From NCBI RefSeq assembly GCF_900221005.1, contig NZ_OBQI01000006.1, forward strand, positions 310,001-374,000: a DNA stretch of 64,000 bases, given 5' to 3'. The position numbers were made by a program, and so were the translations under genes. The DNA is from Blastococcus aggregatus. GTDB taxonomy: Bacteria > Actinomycetota > Actinomycetes > Mycobacteriales > Geodermatophilaceae. Below, in pieces: positions 3,347-62,955 of this stretch (the stretch's first letter is position 1; each line of letters begins with the position of its first letter). Under the pieces are notes generated by a model. The model worked only from the letters and a program-made list of their open reading frames with translations. It made no database searches and had not been told where the DNA came from.

Positions 3347-3358
3347 CGCACATCCGCT

Positions 3359-3404
3359 GAACGCCAGAGGCCCAGAACCGCACCGGTTCTGGGCCTCTGG
3401 CGTT
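3359..3404. terminator. Bidirectional terminator hairpin
   Basis: A perfect stem of at least 20 bp (arms 3360-3379 and 3385-3404, loop GCACC) sits between the convergent desaturase and DUF2804 genes. There is no long U-run, as is usual in high-GC actinobacteria. Confidence 0.85.
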
Positions 3405-3417
3405 CACTGCTTCGGCC

Positions 3418-4908: not shown

Positions 4909-4952
4909 AGTTGGCCATGTCCACGAAGCGGCTGTAGTGGCCCTGGAAGGCG
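4909..4952. repeat. Distal copy of dnaB 3' end (attachment site copy 1)
   Basis: Forty-four bases starting AGTTGGCCATGTCCACGAAG are identical to 6684-6727. Homology stops abruptly after GGAAGGCG. On the minus strand this copy still spells the dnaB C-terminus and ends in TAG, so it is probably the displaced original host end. Confidence 0.85.
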
Positions 4953-4959
4953 TCTTGCG

Positions 4960-5358
4960 TCAGTGCGACGACCAGTCAATGCCGATCACTCGAACCACCG
5001 CATGCTTGTCCCCCTGCCCGCCCCCCTGATATGCAGGATGAAACTCGTAGTCGACCCGCCCGGCCCCAGTGATCTCATAGTGGTACCGGCGTGACCAACC
5101 CCCACTTCCAGCATTGTGCTTGCCCTTGAGTGGCGTACACGTGCCGAGGAGAGGTGGCTGATCAGCGCGATTGGAAACATGATCCCAGAACTGCTGGGCG
5201 TTTTGCGTTCCCACACGCCGCACCAATTCCTGCCATTTAGCCAGGTGGCGCTTATGGATGAGCACCCGGAAGCGCGGCTGGGCATCCGGTCGCCCACCTG
5301 GCCGCTCGGTCGTCAGGTAGGGGTCGTACGCGCCGGCCTCCCTGACGCGAGGGGTCAC
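4960..5358 (-). CDS. Putative RelE/ParE-superfamily toxin
   Basis: A 132-residue basic protein. The C-terminal half (RRYHYEITGAGRVDYEF, then HAVVRVIGIDW) has the beta-strand pattern of the RelE/ParE fold, and the N-terminal half (LIHKRHLAKWQELVRRVG) reads as the two leading helices. It starts with GTG at 5358, sharing GTGA with the stop of the upstream antitoxin-like gene, so translation is coupled. Antitoxin first, toxin second, with overlap, is the classical order for a type II module. RelE-type toxins cleave mRNA on the ribosome and ParE-type toxins poison gyrase; which applies here cannot be decided. The family call is by pattern, not by search. Confidence 0.55.
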   Translation of the reverse strand: MTPRVREAGAYDPYLTTERPGGRPDAQPRFRVLIHKRHLAKWQELVRRVGTQNAQQFWDHVSNRADQPPLLGTCTPLKGKHNAGSGGWSRRYHYEITGAGRVDYEFHPAYQGGGQGDKHAVVRVIGIDWSSH

Positions 5359-5834
5359 TCTTCAGACGCTGGACGATGGACCTCTATAAAGTCATCGTCT
5401 CCAGCTCGTCCCTCAAGAATTTCGCGACTTACGGGATCCGAGAGTGTCGCCGCGGTCATCTGCCAAGCGTGCAAACACCCATCCAACTTTTCGGTGTTGC
5501 GGGCGGATGCTGCGCGGGCCAATTCCTGACCGTACTCCCGCCGCAGTTCATGGAGATCATCATCATCTAGGAATTCAGCCCACGCCAATCCACCGAAGTC
5601 CGTGGGCGCACGGTCCTCACGGGGACGACCCAAAGCAGTCTCAAGTGCCAAGTAATCAGTTATGAATCGTCGCATACTACTCAGAAAGGACAATTCTCCC
5701 TCGGGGAGCATCACCAAACTTGTGCCGTCGGTATCCCGCAGTCGAGCGGTCCCCGCCTTGGCCTCGTCCAGAAACTCACGCCGACCTGTTCCAGCTAGGT
5801 CGCTCGCTTGATACGTACGCTCTAGCAGCGCCAC
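5355..5834 (-). CDS. Putative Phd/YefM-like antitoxin
   Basis: A 159-residue acidic protein. The N-terminus (ERTYQASDLAGTGRREFLDE, then ARLRDTDGTSLVMLPEGEL) matches the Phd/YefM pattern, in which a short DNA-binding domain starts with a beta-strand and 'S-x-x-...-R-R-E-x-L' helix. The long C-terminal helices would wrap the toxin. GTG at 5834 is the start because AGGAGG (5841-5846) lies 6 nt upstream; an earlier GTG at 5867 lacks such a site. It overlaps the RelE-like gene by 4 nt. Antitoxins of this type usually repress their own promoter. At about 160 residues it is longer than classical Phd (about 70-90). Confidence 0.6.
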   Translation of the reverse strand: MALLERTYQASDLAGTGRREFLDEAKAGTARLRDTDGTSLVMLPEGELSFLSSMRRFITDYLALETALGRPREDRAPTDFGGLAWAEFLDDDDLHELRREYGQELARAASARNTEKLDGCLHAWQMTAATLSDPVSREILEGRAGDDDFIEVHRPASEE

Positions 5835-5914
5835 GTGCCACCTCCTGTCGTCCAGGATCATACCCACGATCCTGGCATGCGCACTATCGGCAGGCCTGGC
5901 GTCACTCTTGAGCG

Positions 5915-6559
5915 CTACCTGGGTGGCGCCTGCTCCAGCGTCATCCAGGCTCTGTTCACCTGGGCTTCGACCGAGCAGCCCTCCTGATGCGCCAGGCCGC
6001 TCATGATCTCCTCGGCTCGTTCGAGCAGCAGCCCGATGACCTGCTCGGGCTGCACGTGGTCCTCGACCACCTGTATGGCCGCCATGACCAGGTCAAGCAT
6101 GGCGGAGATGAGGAGGTGGGCCCCGGAGGTGCAGCGGGCGATGCAGGCGCGAAAGACAACCTCGCTCACCCGCAGGTCCTTGATCGCCAGGGCTCCGAGC
6201 AGAGCCTGAGCAGCCTGATGAATGGGATCGTCCGCTTCAGACGGCATTGTCAGCACGACCCCGAGAAGCTCCGAGACAACCGGCTCACCCGGGGCATCAA
6301 GACTCTCGGCCGCGCAGGCACCCAGACCTTCGATGACCGCGTGCGCGCTGCGCCCGACATAGTTGATCATCTCGTCGGGCTCCCCCACGTCCTCTGAGAC
6401 AGCCGTGTGCGCGTGGATGAACGCGATCAAGCAGGCGATCATGTCGGTCGGCATCTCCCGCGCAGCCTCCGCAACCAACGGGTCCAGGACCGCACTGCGG
6501 TTCACCTTGGCCGTTATGAGTGCCTGAGCGCTGCGGCGAACGTCCAAAGCGCTCGTCAA
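5915..6559 (-). CDS. Unrecognised mostly helical protein of the dnaB-end island
   Basis: A 214-residue, largely alpha-helical, acidic protein without signal peptide or clear membrane span (for example EVVFRACIARC near residue 132, LVMAAIQVVEDHVQPEQVI near 157). I recognise no family. Start is TTG at 6559 with AAGGGGG about 7 nt upstream; later starts are possible. It lies upstream of the antitoxin-toxin pair (81 bp between reading frames) in the same orientation and could belong to one transcript. It has lower GC than neighbouring core genes, in keeping with acquisition. It could be a third toxin-antitoxin component, a regulator or cargo; nothing in the sequence decides. Confidence 0.6.
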   Translation of the reverse strand: MTSALDVRRSAQALITAKVNRSAVLDPLVAEAAREMPTDMIACLIAFIHAHTAVSEDVGEPDEMINYVGRSAHAVIEGLGACAAESLDAPGEPVVSELLGVVLTMPSEADDPIHQAAQALLGALAIKDLRVSEVVFRACIARCTSGAHLLISAMLDLVMAAIQVVEDHVQPEQVIGLLLERAEEIMSGLAHQEGCSVEAQVNRAWMTLEQAPPR

Positions 6560-6681
6560 GAGCGGCCCCCTTGCAACGGCTCAGCCCACTGGTCGTCGCG
6601 GCGGGAAGGGCTCAGACCGCCGAACGCTGCATGTCGGTCGGCGAACGTGCCCTCCGTCCCATCCGCCAAACGCAACATCTG

Positions 6682-8052
6682 TCAGTTGGCCATGTCCACG
6701 AAGCGGCTGTAGTGGCCCTGGAAGGCGACGGTGACGTTCGCGGTCGGGCCGTTGCGGTGCTTGACCAGCATGATGTCGGCCTCGCCGGCCCGCGGGGACT
6801 CCTTCTCGTACATGTCCTCGCGGTGGATCATCATCACCATGTCGGCGTCCTGCTCGATCGAGCCGGACTCGCGGAGGTCGGACAGCATCGGCTTCTTGTC
6901 CTGACGCTGCTCCGACCCACGGTTGAGCTGCGACATCGCGATGACCGGGAGCTCGAGCTCCTTGGCCAGCAGCTTCAGCGCGCGGGAGAACTCCGAGACC
7001 TCCTGCTGGCGGCTCTCCACCTTCTTGCCCGAGGTCATCAGCTGCAGGTAGTCGATCACGATGAGCTTGAGGTCGTTGCGCTGCTTGAGCCGCCGGGCCT
7101 TGGCCCGGATCTCCATCATCGTCATGTTCGGTGAGTCGTCGATGTAGAGCGGCGCGTCGGCGATCTCGCCCATCCGCCGGGCCAGCTTCGACCAGTCCTC
7201 GTCGCTCAGCGTGCCGGCGCGCATGTGGTGCAGCGGCACCTTCGCCTCGGCCGACAGCAGACGCATGGTGATCTCGTGCTTGCTCATCTCGAGCGAGAAG
7301 ATGGCGGCGGGCATGTGGTGCTTCACCGACGCCGAGCGCGCGATGTCCAGGCCCAGGGTGCTCTTGCCGACACCGGGACGGGCCGCGATGACGATCATCT
7401 GGCCGGACTGCAGGCCGTTGGTCAGTTCGTCGAGGTCGCGGATGCCGGTCGGGACGCCGCGGCTCACACCGCCGCGGGACGCGATCGCGTCCAGCTCGTC
7501 CATCGTGGGCTGCAGGACGTCGGCGAGGCGCGAGTAGTCCTCGCTCATCCGCTTCTCGGTGACGTCGTAGATCTCCTGCTGGGCGCGGTCGACGATGTCG
7601 TCGACGTCGCCCCGGCCGCCGGCGGCGCCGTAGCCCAGCTGGACGACGCGCGTGCCGGCCTCGACCAGCCGGCGCAGCACTGCCTGCTCGGCCACGATCG
7701 CGGCGTAGTAGCCGGCGTTGGCCGCCGTCGGCGTCGAGGCGATGAGCGTGTGCAGGTAGACCGCGCCACCCATCTTGGACAGCTGGTCGGTGCGGTTCAG
7801 CTCGGCGGCGACGGTGATCGCGTCGGCGGGCTCACCGCGGCCGTACAGGTCAAGGACGACGTCGAAGATGATCTGGTGCGCCGGGCGGTAGAAGTCGGCG
7901 CCGTGCAGGACCTCGACGACGTCGGCGATGGCGTCCTTGCTGAGCAGCATGCCGCCGAGCACCGACTGCTCGGCCTGGACGTCCTGCGGGGGCTGCCGGT
8001 CGTACTCCGGCGCCGCCGCCATCGGCCGGCTGTACTCGTCGGCCACCGCCAC
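6682..8052 (-). CDS. dnaB: Replicative DNA helicase DnaB
   Basis: A 456-residue hexameric 5'-3' helicase of the replication fork. The N-terminal DnaB domain begins near PPQDVQAEQSVLGGML. The RecA-like C-terminal domain has Walker A ARPGVGKST, Walker B LIVIDYLQLM and the conserved MSQLNRG and SDLRESGSIEQDADMV segments. No intein is present, unlike many mycobacterial DnaBs. GTG at 8052 is the start because GGAGGT (8060-8065) lies 7 nt upstream; upstream in-frame codons look like leader. Its last 44 bp are duplicated at 4909-4952, the boundary of the island. It follows rplI in the same direction, as in other actinobacteria. Confidence 0.97.
   Translation of the reverse strand: MAVADEYSRPMAAAPEYDRQPPQDVQAEQSVLGGMLLSKDAIADVVEVLHGADFYRPAHQIIFDVVLDLYGRGEPADAITVAAELNRTDQLSKMGGAVYLHTLIASTPTAANAGYYAAIVAEQAVLRRLVEAGTRVVQLGYGAAGGRGDVDDIVDRAQQEIYDVTEKRMSEDYSRLADVLQPTMDELDAIASRGGVSRGVPTGIRDLDELTNGLQSGQMIVIAARPGVGKSTLGLDIARSASVKHHMPAAIFSLEMSKHEITMRLLSAEAKVPLHHMRAGTLSDEDWSKLARRMGEIADAPLYIDDSPNMTMMEIRAKARRLKQRNDLKLIVIDYLQLMTSGKKVESRQQEVSEFSRALKLLAKELELPVIAMSQLNRGSEQRQDKKPMLSDLRESGSIEQDADMVMMIHREDMYEKESPRAGEADIMLVKHRNGPTANVTVAFQGHYSRFVDMAN
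6684..6727. repeat. dnaB-proximal copy of 44-bp repeat (attachment site copy 2)
   Basis: This is the 3' end of the intact dnaB gene, identical to 4909-4952. After the copy the sequence continues as dnaB on one side and island DNA on the other (stop TGA at 6682-6684). Confidence 0.85.
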
Positions 8053-8251
8053 GGGGCATACCTCCATCTCCTGCAGGCGCGCCCGCAAGCCGCTCACCGA
8101 GGGGAAGCCGGGAGGTCGGCGGGCGCCGCCAGTGCCGAACGCGTGTTCGGTCCTTGCTACCGCCGGGCACTGACATTTCGCGTCCCGCAGCAGCTGGGGA
8201 GGACGTTAGGAACCTGGAGCGGCGCCGTCCAACACCTCGATCTGCACAACA

Positions 8252-61414: not shown

Positions 61415-61488
61415 GGGCCTGTAGCTCAGGCGGTTAGAGCGCATCCCTGATAAGGATGAGGCCGGAGGTTCAAGTCCTCCCAGGCCCA
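61415..61488 (+). tRNA. tRNA-Ile (anticodon GAT)
   Basis: 74-nt cloverleaf: acceptor GGGCCTG/CAGGCCC, anticodon arm CATCC-CTGATAA-GGATG with GAT at 61449-61451, T arm GGAGG-TTCAAGT-CCTCC. CCA is not encoded. It follows gyrA-DUF3566 as in mycobacteria. Confidence 0.98.
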
Positions 61489-61560
61489 CCCGTGTGCCGG
61501 TGCCTCCGGGCGCCGTACTCGCATCGAGTCGGCGCGCCACGCGCCCGAGGAGGTCATCGC

Positions 61561-61704
61561 GTGCTGAAGAAGCTGGCGCTGGTCGCAGCGGCCGTCGGTG
61601 CAGTCGCCGCCGTCCGCAGGCGCTCCAGCGGCAAGGCCGAGGCCGACCTCTGGCGCGAGGCCACCAGCGGCCCCCAGGCCGTCAGCACCCCCACCGCACG
61701 CTGA
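61561..61704 (+). CDS. DLW-39 family small protein
   Basis: 47 residues: a short hydrophobic N-terminal helix (LKKLALVAAAVGAVAAV), a basic patch and the family's DLW motif (ADLWREAT). The function of DLW-39 proteins is not known. GTG at 61561 has AGGAGG 8 nt upstream. Its place between tRNA-Ile and tRNA-Ala is the usual one in actinobacteria. Confidence 0.85.
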   Translation: MLKKLALVAAAVGAVAAVRRRSSGKAEADLWREATSGPQAVSTPTAR

Positions 61705-61729
61705 TCCACCCCGGGGCCCCGGCCCCGTC

Positions 61730-61802
61730 GGGGACGTAGCTCAATTGGCAGAGCACCGCCTTTGCAAGGCGGGGGTTAGGGGTTCGATTCCCCTCGTCTC
61801 CA
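61730..61802 (+). tRNA. tRNA-Ala (anticodon TGC), attachment site of an integrated element
   Basis: 73-nt cloverleaf: acceptor GGGGACG/CGTCTCC, anticodon arm CCGCC-TTTGCAA-GGCGG with TGC at 61763-61765, T arm AGGGG-TTCGATT-CCCCT. CCA not encoded. The integrase gene reads into it from the right, ending in its D-arm, so its 3' end is the attL side of the element. Confidence 0.98.
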
Positions 61803-62955
61803 CTCCGCTGACCTGCGGATTCACCTCCGTCGGGGGCTCCGGCGAACCCTCCCGCCGGGTCTCAGTCCGCAAAAAGTCCGCAACTCGTCCGCGGGCTGCG
61901 GCCCGCAGGGCGTCCAGCCGGTCTGCCACGTCGTCCAGGTCGTCATCGAACAGGTCGGCGTAGCGGTCCAGGGTCATGGCCGCCGAGGCGTGCCCGAGCA
62001 TCCGCTGCACCGCCTTGACGTTGGCTCCCGCCTTGATCGCCAGCGAGGCCGCGGTGTGCCGGAGCTCATGCGGCGTGAGCCCGGGCTCCCCGATGGCCCG
62101 GGCCGCGGCGTCGAACCAGGCGGACCGGGCGTTCCGGTTGCGCAGCACCGCGCCCTGCGGCGAGGGGAAGGCCAGCTCGTCGGCAGGGCGGGTCACGACC
62201 GCCCGGGCGAGCTCGTCGACGAGGAACCGCGGCAGCGGCACCGAGCGGCGGCCGTGGGTCTTCGGCGTACCCCACACCAGGCGCGAGCCGTCGACCTCGG
62301 TGACCGCCTCCTCCACCAGGACCCGCCGGCGCAACAGGTCGAAGTGCCGCACCCGCAGCGCCGCCAGCTCCGACCAGCGCAGCCCGCAGTAGCCGAGCAC
62401 CAGTACCGCCACCCGGCCGGGCCCGGCGGCCTCGGCGAGCGCGTCGAGCTGCTCGGCGGTGAGGTACCGCCGGCGCTTCTCGCCCATCGGCGGCAGGGCG
62501 ACGCCCAGGGCGGGATTGACCGCCAGGCGCCGGTCGCGCACCGCGAGCCCGAGGATGCCCGACAGGACGCCCTGGGCCTTGCGGACCGAGGCCCCGGCCA
62601 GCCCCCGGCCGGAGAGCTCGGACAGCCAGGCCTGCACGTCGCCGTGGGTCACCCGGATCAGCGCGACGTGCCCCCAGCGCGGTAGGACGTGGGTCTTGAG
62701 GACGTCGGCGTAGCGGGCCCGACTGGTGGGCTTGAGGTTGATCTTCCCGGCGAGCCAGACCGGCGCCAGCTCGCCCACGGTCGTCCTGGCCCGCTTGGGG
62801 TCGACGTAGGTGCCCGTCTGCACGGCCGCGGTGACCTCGTCGAGCCATCGCTGGGCATCGACCTTGCGCTTGAAGTGGCGAGCGTGCTCCTTGCCGTGCT
62901 CGTCGCGGTACCGCGGCCGGTACGTACCGTCAGGTCTTCTCGCGATCGACACCAT
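61741..62955 (-). CDS. int: Tyrosine recombinase (integrase) ending inside tRNA-Ala
   Basis: 404 residues. N-terminal AP2-like DNA-binding part (RPDGTYRPRYRDEHGKEHAR), SAM-like core-binding domain (ELAPVWLAGKINLKPTSRAR) and catalytic domain with Arg in GLRWSELAALR, HELRHTAASLAIK, LGHASAAMTLDRY with the nucleophile Tyr. The catalytic set looks complete. The last 20 or so residues (TRGIEPLTPALQRRC) are simply the antisense reading of tRNA-Ala, and the stop lies in its D-arm. ATG at 62955. Confidence 0.95.
   Translation of the reverse strand: MVSIARRPDGTYRPRYRDEHGKEHARHFKRKVDAQRWLDEVTAAVQTGTYVDPKRARTTVGELAPVWLAGKINLKPTSRARYADVLKTHVLPRWGHVALIRVTHGDVQAWLSELSGRGLAGASVRKAQGVLSGILGLAVRDRRLAVNPALGVALPPMGEKRRRYLTAEQLDALAEAAGPGRVAVLVLGYCGLRWSELAALRVRHFDLLRRRVLVEEAVTEVDGSRLVWGTPKTHGRRSVPLPRFLVDELARAVVTRPADELAFPSPQGAVLRNRNARSAWFDAAARAIGEPGLTPHELRHTAASLAIKAGANVKAVQRMLGHASAAMTLDRYADLFDDDLDDVADRLDALRAAARGRVADFLRTETRREGSPEPPTEVNPQVSGVETRGIEPLTPALQRRCSAN

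What the first reader, a model, noticed from the sequence alone, without database searches (positions are those of the whole stretch)
4909..6727. Micro-island using the dnaB 3' end as attachment site
The last 44 bp of dnaB are duplicated exactly on the far side of a 1.7-kb lower-GC segment. The distal copy ends with TAG and the intact gene with TGA, as expected if an element replaced the gene's 3' end on integration. I know of no actinobacterial element family that targets dnaB, and this one carries no recombinase. It could be a minimal trans-mobilised element or a decayed larger one.
Basis: partly seen in the sequence, partly recalled or inferred. Interest (0 to 1): 0.8.

Follow-up and report, generated by a model that had tools for sequence, protein, structure and literature searches.

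The report
Toxin-antitoxin islet behind dnaB gene
A small piece of foreign DNA carrying a toxin-antitoxin-like gene pair sits just behind an essential replication gene, bracketed by two copies of that gene's tail, and similar tail-bracketed toxin-antitoxin islets occur in a few other actinobacteria, which may show how such gene pairs move without their own recombinase.

Summary
The last 44 bp of dnaB (6684-6727) recur exactly at 4909-4952, TGA against TAG, around 1,731 bp of low-GC DNA with no recombinase match. Of 111 other genomes of the family, 101 have a recognisable dnaB end; none shows the insert.

The cargo is a conserved actinobacterial gene pair, YoeB-fold toxin (ORF1) with probable Phd/YefM-type antitoxin (ORF2), plus an orphan ORF3.

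Searching by cargo, not by repeats, I found other toxin-antitoxin islets bracketed by a neighbour gene's tail: sdaA (Actinomadura hibisca), a GNAT gene (Cellulomonas cellasea), msrA and an epimerase gene (G278, G228). These are 4 of 28 loci, at 3 independent sites, against 0 of 85 control loci. One more, round a Fic pair in A. hibisca, was met by another route.

Target genes differ, repeats run from 40 to about 350 bp, and in G278 two stacked pairs share no common core. I therefore favour additive recombination anchored in a gene tail over a dnaB-specific attachment site. An integrase-made att site remains possible for dnaB taken alone. The mechanism is inferred, not shown.

The parts
6682..8097 (-). 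dnaB, intact replicative helicase gene, 471 aa, ends M-A-N-TGA; uninterrupted
   Evidence: ORF list; Pfam DnaB_C 1.3e-107 and DnaB N-terminal 2.8e-34
6684..6727 (-). gene-side copy of the 44-bp repeat (dnaB tail)
4909..4952 (-). distal copy of the 44-bp repeat, ends TAG, cut off from the rest of dnaB
4953..6683 (.). inserted segment, 62.7% G+C, not found in the other 111 genomes of the family searched
4960..5358 (-). ORF1, 132 aa, toxin of YoeB/RelE fold (predicted); its stop lies 7 bp from the distal copy
   Evidence: family of 13 aligned; AlphaFold pLDDT 79.7; Foldseek top hit YoeB 7v6w, prob 1.00, target TM 0.74, E 0.036, no hit with E below 0.001; no Pfam match
5355..5867 (-). ORF2, 170 aa, probable antitoxin: Phd/YefM-like N-terminus, DUF6247-like C-terminus; overlaps ORF1 by 4 bp
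   Evidence: DUF6247 match (E up to 1) in 13 of 15 family members, below the curated cut-off in the window protein (19.2 vs 26.9 bits); Foldseek hits to YefM and Phd over about 50 residues, prob up to 0.75 but E about 1 or more
5915..6559 (-). ORF3, 214 aa, function unknown; first gene of the three, all in dnaB's direction
   Evidence: no convincing family match; two weak genome hits outside its own genome
4448..4867 (-). native gene (DUF7715) on the far side of the islet
   Evidence: Pfam 5e-44; a relative of it lies between the desaturase gene and dnaB in 4 of 20 same-genus loci (L035, L041, L044, L049)

Best explanation
A horizontally acquired toxin-antitoxin islet (ORF3, Phd/YefM-like ORF2, YoeB-fold ORF1) was added behind dnaB. 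Shown: the insert is foreign to the family as searched, its repeats are the dnaB tail, dnaB is intact, no recombinase match lies inside, and the same gene pair or other toxin-antitoxin pairs elsewhere sit between duplicated tails of other genes. Inferred: donor DNA carrying the end of a dnaB gene followed by the toxin-antitoxin operon paired with the recipient's dnaB tail (the anchor). The crossover joined donor DNA behind dnaB, bringing the donor's stop codon TGA. The other end was closed without homology, or the fragment had first been circularised, and this left the recipient's own tail (TAG) displaced on the far side. Such one-sided, additive events would be kept because the gene stays whole and because an addictive resident pair cannot be replaced without harming the cell. 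The repeat ends at the stop codon because only coding sequence is shared between donor and recipient.
For: (1) Family survey: 101 of 111 other genomes have a dnaB-end match (E <= 4e-10), 100 at one place and G066 at two contigs that both hold dnaB sequence; none shows the islet. (2) Same gene pair in 12 named actinobacterial genomes, ORF2 homologue directly upstream of the ORF1 homologue in 12 of 12. (3) Loci chosen by cargo show gene-tail repeats around a pair: A. hibisca sdaA 39/40, spacing 2,505; C. cellasea GNAT 69/83, spacing 2,744; G278 msrA 115/123 (around the ORF2-type pair) and epimerase 75/82 (around a YefM-YoeB pair); G228 msrA 54/59, spacing 682 (around a YefM-YoeB pair next to the ORF2-type pair for which the locus was chosen). 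One more, A. hibisca C48 round a Fic pair (81.6% over 347 columns), was met through a stray sdaA-like match. (4) Tally: gene-tail pairs around a toxin-antitoxin pair in 4 of 28 cargo-chosen loci against 0 of 85 control loci, Fisher p 0.003 by script; L206 and L212 are the same site, so 3 independent sites. (5) In G278, msrA - pair 1 - epimerase tail fused to msrA tail - pair 2 - epimerase: it reads as two alleles of one intergenic region in tandem; the msrA tail is at the first two junctions only, the epimerase tail at the last two only. In G228 the same two pairs lie behind msrA in the other order. (6) In G228 the gene ends TGA and the displaced copy TAG, breaking after the same T as in dnaB; by my reading 4 of the 5 differences are at third codon positions, as if both had diverged as genes. 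(7) Precedent: homology-facilitated illegitimate recombination proposed for Vibrio effector-immunity arrays (PMC5361080, section 13 read).
Against: No donor with dnaB followed by this operon was found. The 44-bp repeat by itself looks like an ordinary att repeat, and its precise restoration of dnaB is what tyrosine integrases do (recalled). In the Fic case the copies differ without third-position bias (mismatches 25, 17, 17 by codon position) and in C. cellasea the distal copy has an in-frame stop and a short shifted stretch, as expected if one copy simply decayed in place. In 24 of 28 cargo loci no gene-tail repeat was seen, and one copy (Streptomyces sp. P3) rides in a tRNA-Pro island with a broken tyrosine integrase, so integrase-borne transport of this cargo does occur. 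The same paper that gives the precedent notes that such recombination is rare in experiments. The statistics are small and the control loci are not matched for gene content. The window case was found because of its repeat.
Confidence: 0.5

Rival explanations
1. Site-specific integration: the 44 bp are attL and attR of a tyrosine-integrase element that targets the dnaB 3' end. The islet is what is left after decay, or a minimal element moved by an integrase in trans (a CIME-like element).
For: Exact 44-bp repeat inside the 3' end of a gene, with the gene restored and a new stop codon, is the textbook picture (recalled). The host genome has 16 PF00589 matches, 15 marked over the curated cut-off, one of them in the window at 61741-62955, so a trans-acting enzyme is conceivable. 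One relative of the cargo sits in a tRNA-Pro island with a broken integrase.
Against: No other dnaB-tail copy in the genome above background, no larger dnaB-bounded element seen in 112 family genomes, no attP-only copy in 50 IMG/VR contigs with the motif (the match ends a dnaB reading in each); the best phage-collection match is a full dnaB. The same cargo or its neighbours sit at sdaA, GNAT, msrA and epimerase tails with repeats of 40 to 123 bp, and the G278 stack has no common core.
Confidence: 0.35
2. Capture at a staggered break: a double-strand break with a long overhang in the dnaB tail was filled in while a foreign fragment was joined, which duplicates the overhang like a target-site duplication.
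For: Would give an exact repeat of arbitrary length with no recombinase, as here. A 30-bp sdaA-like piece (28 of 30, E 7.9e-6, next best match 0.028) at the junction of the A. hibisca Fic islet looks like filler DNA.
Against: The copies should then be identical up to their end when formed. In G278 the msrA copies match 103 of 105 and then differ at 6 of the last 18 bases, and the epimerase copies match 61 of 61 and then 14 of 21 beyond, which looks like two diverged alleles.
Confidence: 0.08
3. Chance or in-place duplication with no transfer: the dnaB tail was duplicated locally and the DNA between is native.
For: A short tandem tail duplication exists in one relative, G044: 14 bp exact by script, an 18-bp unit by my reading.
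Against: Foreign base composition, absence from the relatives searched, cargo of patchy distribution, chance expectation about 3e-14.
Confidence: 0.02

Closest known systems
CIME (cis-mobilisable element; decayed ICE or IME keeping attL and attR), definition in passages seen of PMC5704250
   Same: Flanking direct repeats at a gene 3' end, no integration or transfer genes
   Different: No parent element with the same site found; same cargo at other genes with other repeats; only 1.7 kb with a toxin-antitoxin pair
Vibrio cholerae T6SS effector-immunity arrays and orphan Rhs tails, explained by homology-facilitated illegitimate recombination (PMC5361080, section 13 and passages seen)
   Same: Module added behind a conserved gene part, old module kept, displaced 3' end of a gene left behind, no integrase
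   Different: There the displaced tail belongs to the toxin gene itself; here it is the tail of an unrelated neighbour such as dnaB, sdaA or msrA, and the cargo is an intracellular toxin-antitoxin pair
YefM-YoeB type II toxin-antitoxin systems (Streptomyces example: PMC3303803, passages seen)
   Same: Antitoxin gene first, overlapping toxin gene, toxin of YoeB fold
   Different: ORF1 is longer (132 aa) and without a Pfam match; ORF2 has an extra DUF6247-like helical half; no activity shown
AICEs, actinobacterial integrative and conjugative elements (PMC3218068, passages seen)
   Same: Integrated elements at gene 3' ends in Actinobacteria; most in tRNA genes, a few in protein genes
   Different: No int, rep or tra match here; the word dnaB does not occur in that paper's main text

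Membership tests
CIME / trans-mobilised integrative element | flanked by attL and attR made by site-specific recombination | tested here: inconclusive
   44-bp repeat present; site-specific origin not shown
CIME / trans-mobilised integrative element | no integration or transfer genes | tested here: met
   three ORFs without a recombinase, relaxase or tra match
CIME / trans-mobilised integrative element | related complete element at the same site | tested here: not met
   none seen in 112 family genomes; order (298) and class (296) pattern searches show no other adjacent pair in the rows that could be read (class rows were cut off, five genomes with two same-strand copies not followed)
Type II toxin-antitoxin system | two overlapping co-directional genes, antitoxin first | tested here: met
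   4-bp overlap in the window; order kept in 12 of 12 other loci
Type II toxin-antitoxin system | toxin of a known fold | tested here: met
   YoeB top Foldseek hit, prob 1.00, target TM 0.74, but E 0.036 and no Pfam match
Type II toxin-antitoxin system | antitoxin with a known DNA-binding fold | tested here: inconclusive
   Phd/YefM hits over about 50 residues, prob up to 0.75, E about 1 or more; no Phd/YefM match among the Pfam families listed for 15 members
Type II toxin-antitoxin system | growth arrest by the toxin, rescue by the antitoxin | not testable with these tools
   needs an expression test
Integron gene cassette | attC-like foldable site | tested here: not met
   the repeat folds no better than shuffles as single-stranded DNA: z 1.34 and -0.18
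Homology-facilitated illegitimate (tail-anchored) insertion | one homologous anchor, displaced homologous remnant, second junction without homology | tested here: met
   dnaB tail as anchor and remnant; bases beyond the repeat on the inner sides do not continue dnaB by my reading. This signature is not exclusive to the mechanism
Homology-facilitated illegitimate (tail-anchored) insertion | donor allele with the same gene followed by the module | tested here: not met
   not found in the family; beyond it only cargo proteins and the dnaB-end motif were searched

The most novel reading that the evidence does not exclude
Solitary chromosomal toxin-antitoxin pairs of several families travel between actinobacteria as recombinase-free, tail-anchored cassettes. 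Each carries 40 to a few hundred bases of the 3' end of its neighbour gene, inserts by host recombination behind that same gene in the new host, stacks with resident pairs instead of replacing them, and can in principle leave again by recombination between the two tails.
Probability: 0.3. Interest if true: 0.8.

Novelty: new variant of a known kind. Interest (0 to 1): 0.6.

Why it matters
How lone chromosomal toxin-antitoxin pairs move without a plasmid, phage or transposon is, as far as I know, an open question. A duplicated neighbour-gene tail is a simple footprint that can be counted in any genome. If it holds up it would tell the anchor gene, the order of arrivals and possibly the donor, and it would suggest that addiction favours stacking over replacement. 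It would also warn annotators that a repeat at a gene 3' end need not mean an integrase.

Tried and rejected
dnaB attachment site in viruses: the motif hit 50 IMG/VR contigs, and in each the match ends a dnaB reading, in a few cut short by the end of the held stretch (19 residues in L100), not a lone tail; the exact 35-mer gave none. The phage collection gave 4 weak records; the best is a full dnaB (442 aligned residues), the other three were not looked at. Plasmids: 90 records match the tail at E up to 10; of the 30 listed, 21 lie under an annotated dnaB and 9 under no listed gene. Of three of those 9 read, one holds a long dnaB, one a dnaB cut at residue 319 and one a 30-codon remnant. Order survey: 5 genomes of one genus have two motif copies on opposite strands, far apart or on other contigs; the second is a full dnaB-like gene in 4 and a 33-codon remnant in G281. 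Class survey: besides the window's genome, 8 have two copies on one strand (G412, G426, G442, G539, G548, G555, G586, G609); for G426, G548 and G609 they lie on different contigs, the rows of the other five were cut off and not followed.

Cargo in viruses and plasmids: no ORF1, ORF2 or ORF3 relative confirmed in viral contigs, no ORF2 in phages, one ORF2 relative in a Mycobacterium intracellulare plasmid, no ORF1 or ORF3 in plasmids, one weak match of the TPR-like protein in an Arthrobacter plasmid, not followed. Repeats rejected as not gene tails: L148 (dispersed repeats, some straddling the pair), L150 (two whole small paralogous genes), L154 (away from the pair), L216 (tandem paralogues). 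The 8 control loci with 80-89% pairs: L040, L042, L043, L051 repeats within one gene, L041 terminator-like, L089 both kinds, L129 and L143 copies within longer reading frames. At 90% identity, 5 of 28 cargo loci (L147, L148, L154, L206, L212) and 0 of 85 controls have a pair; 3 of those 5 are gene tails around a pair. An earlier ungapped test on other segments gave 2 of 87 null segments at score 20 or more, one of them (L040) at 31 or more. Recombination inside dnaB: the tail is near-identical in the 35 relatives compared, no clear mosaic signal. Folding of the repeat, Rfam and promoter scans gave nothing useful. Sequence search of solved structures gave nothing useful. Papers: ten searches ran. 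Exact phrases for dnaB as insertion site gave 0 papers, and searches for toxin-antitoxin pairs with direct repeats or duplicated tails listed nothing that I recognised as this (listings and starts of abstracts only). So absence from print is not established.

Rows dropped before the 28-locus count: of the ORF2-like matches, those of G223 and G325 lie at contig edges and were not fetched; the plasmid locus L054 was left out; L149 has only about 700 bp on one side. A. hibisca C48 is not in the count because it was not found by cargo.
Full report
Observation. The repeat is real and exact: 44 bp at 4909-4952 and 6684-6727, 47 of 49 with neighbouring bases. It is the last 14 codons of dnaB plus one base on each side. 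The functional dnaB ends TGA, the displaced copy TAG. The 1,731 bp between are 62.7% G+C in a window of 72.9%, lower than all 236 segments sampled elsewhere in the window. A composition-only estimate for such a pair is about 3e-14.

Family survey. With the whole segment as query, 112 genomes of the family were searched, then again with the dnaB end alone down to E 1. Of the 111 other genomes, 101 have a dnaB-end match (E <= 4e-10); 100 have one place and G066 two contigs, both holding dnaB sequence. Ten genomes, all in about 260 contigs or more, have no clear match. Only the window's genome has a second tail. No relative shows the interior; four have short matches of 28-59 bp (E 1.8e-4 to 8.8e-4). 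The list of weak matches was cut at about E 0.01, so I also read about 9 kb behind dnaB in 35 relatives: the longest exact match to the last 72 bases was 15 bp, and in G044 a 14-bp match directly behind the gene, which I read as an 18-bp tandem unit. The region between the desaturase gene and dnaB is variable in the genus: in the 20 loci compared, DUF2804 and DUF7715 genes come and go. G016 has the DUF2804 gene 66 bp behind dnaB and G002 the DUF7715 gene 467 bp behind it. An exact empty site was therefore not seen, though the relatives with a dnaB end are unoccupied.

Cargo. ORF1 has relatives in 1 of the 297 other order genomes searched and in 12 named actinobacterial genomes: Actinomadura, Cryobacterium, Nonomuraea (2), Microbispora, Acrocarpospora, Streptomyces (2), Cellulomonas, Bifidobacterium, Actinokineospora and a Propionibacteriaceae MAG. 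An ORF2 relative lies directly upstream in 12 of 12. A protein related to one of 446 aa in A. hibisca lies divergently upstream in 9 of 12; weak TPR matches were found in 3 of 4 members scanned. It was not found in the window, where ORF3 takes that place. The AlphaFold model of ORF1 (13 sequences, pLDDT 79.7) has one good Foldseek match, a YoeB toxin (7v6w, probability 1.00, target TM 0.74, E 0.036; none under 0.001). ORF2 (pLDDT 86.2) matches YefM and Phd over about 50 N-terminal residues with probability up to 0.75 but E about 1 or more, and DUF6247 in 13 of 15 members. I call the pair a type II toxin-antitoxin system by this evidence; activity is not shown. ORF3 stays unexplained.

Other tail-bracketed islets. 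I tested loci chosen by cargo for flanking repeats. In A. hibisca (L147) the pair and its TPR-like partner lie between two copies of the sdaA tail, 39 of 40 bp, 2,505 bp apart, with sdaA intact. In C. cellasea (L153) the same three kinds of gene lie between copies of a GNAT gene's tail, 69 of 83 bp, 2,744 bp apart; the distal copy has an in-frame stop. In G278 (L212) msrA is followed by pair 1 (DUF6247-type antitoxin with a small partner that has no Pfam match), then an 82-bp epimerase tail fused to a 123-bp msrA tail, then pair 2 (YefM-YoeB by Pfam), then a 111-aa ORF and the intact epimerase gene. In G228 (L206) the same two pairs lie behind msrA in the other order, and the YefM-YoeB pair alone is bracketed by msrA tails 682 bp apart. 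G228 is Actinokineospora sp. NBRC 105648 by equal contig length with L157, an inference. In A. hibisca C48 (L174, L175) a Fic gene with an Arc-like partner (weak Pfam match) lies between two copies of a neighbour gene's tail, 81.6% over 347 columns, with 30 bp of sdaA-like tail at the junction. I saw no recombinase among the ORFs read in these intervals; not every ORF was scanned. In Streptomyces sp. P3 (L155) the pair sits in an 8.1-kb tRNA-Pro island with a tyrosine integrase in two pieces.

Control. Self-comparison with one rule (80% identity, 30-450 bp, 600-3,000 bp apart) gave pairs in 8 of 85 control loci (35 family dnaB loci, 50 IMG/VR loci), none a gene tail, and in 6 of 28 cargo loci, 4 of them gene tails around a pair. 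At 90% identity: 0 of 85 against 5 of 28, 3 of them gene tails around a pair. Fisher p 0.003 for 4 of 28 and 0.014 for 3 of 28 against 0 of 85. L206 and L212 are the same site, so independence is overstated, and the controls are not matched.

Mechanism. A single dnaB-specific integrase does not explain tails of six genes (dnaB, sdaA, GNAT, msrA, epimerase and the C48 neighbour), repeats of 40 to about 350 bp, and a stack whose three junctions share no core. Two alleles of the msrA-epimerase interval joined in tandem are what additive transfer would leave. The dnaB case has the same anatomy as the G228 case down to the base: both repeats end on the T of the stop codon, gene TGA, remnant TAG. 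Homology that ends at the stop codon is natural if the two tails come from two real genes of donor and recipient. The published model for Vibrio effector-immunity arrays, homology-facilitated illegitimate recombination, gives comparable structures (PMC5361080). I put this at 0.5 and a classical att site at 0.35, because for dnaB alone the latter remains entirely possible and one relative of the cargo does ride in an integrase island.

Limits. No donor and no exact empty site were found. The genome sets hold one strain per species. The class survey rows were cut off. The literature searches cannot show that the pattern is unpublished.

Noticed in passing
L160, L165, L167 and many family dnaB loci, for example L082, L087: Breaks in dnaB matches at about codons 245 and 413 suggest inteins at two sites in relatives; the window's dnaB is uninterrupted. 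Intein identity was not tested.
   Followed up: partly
window 61741-62955, next to tRNA-Ile and tRNA-Ala at 61415-61803: A tyrosine integrase gene lies beside two tRNA genes; possibly the end of another element that runs out of the window.
   Followed up: partly
L174 / L175, A. hibisca contig C48: 30 bp very like the sdaA tail (28 of 30) sits at the junction of a Fic toxin-antitoxin islet, as if filler DNA had been copied in.
   Followed up: partly
L159, G281:C1:2775430: A 33-codon dnaB tail remnant near ORFs that I read as Cas1- and Cas2-like (by recall, not scanned).
   Followed up: no
L170, Streptomyces virginiae plasmid NZ_CP109128.1: A lone 30-codon dnaB tail on a 105-kb plasmid without the rest of dnaB next to it.
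   Followed up: no
L031 and L088, G044 behind dnaB: A short tandem duplication that includes the dnaB stop codon (14 bp exact by script, 18-bp unit by my reading).
   Followed up: no
window 3358-3406 and L041, L089: Long perfect or near-perfect terminator-like hairpins recur at several gene ends in the family, with similar sequence.
   Followed up: no
L147 6093-7433 and homologues in 8 more of 12 loci: A conserved protein, weakly TPR-like in 3 of 4 members scanned, divergent from the toxin-antitoxin pair and unmatched in PADLOC (2 members scanned); may be a third component of the system.
   Followed up: partly
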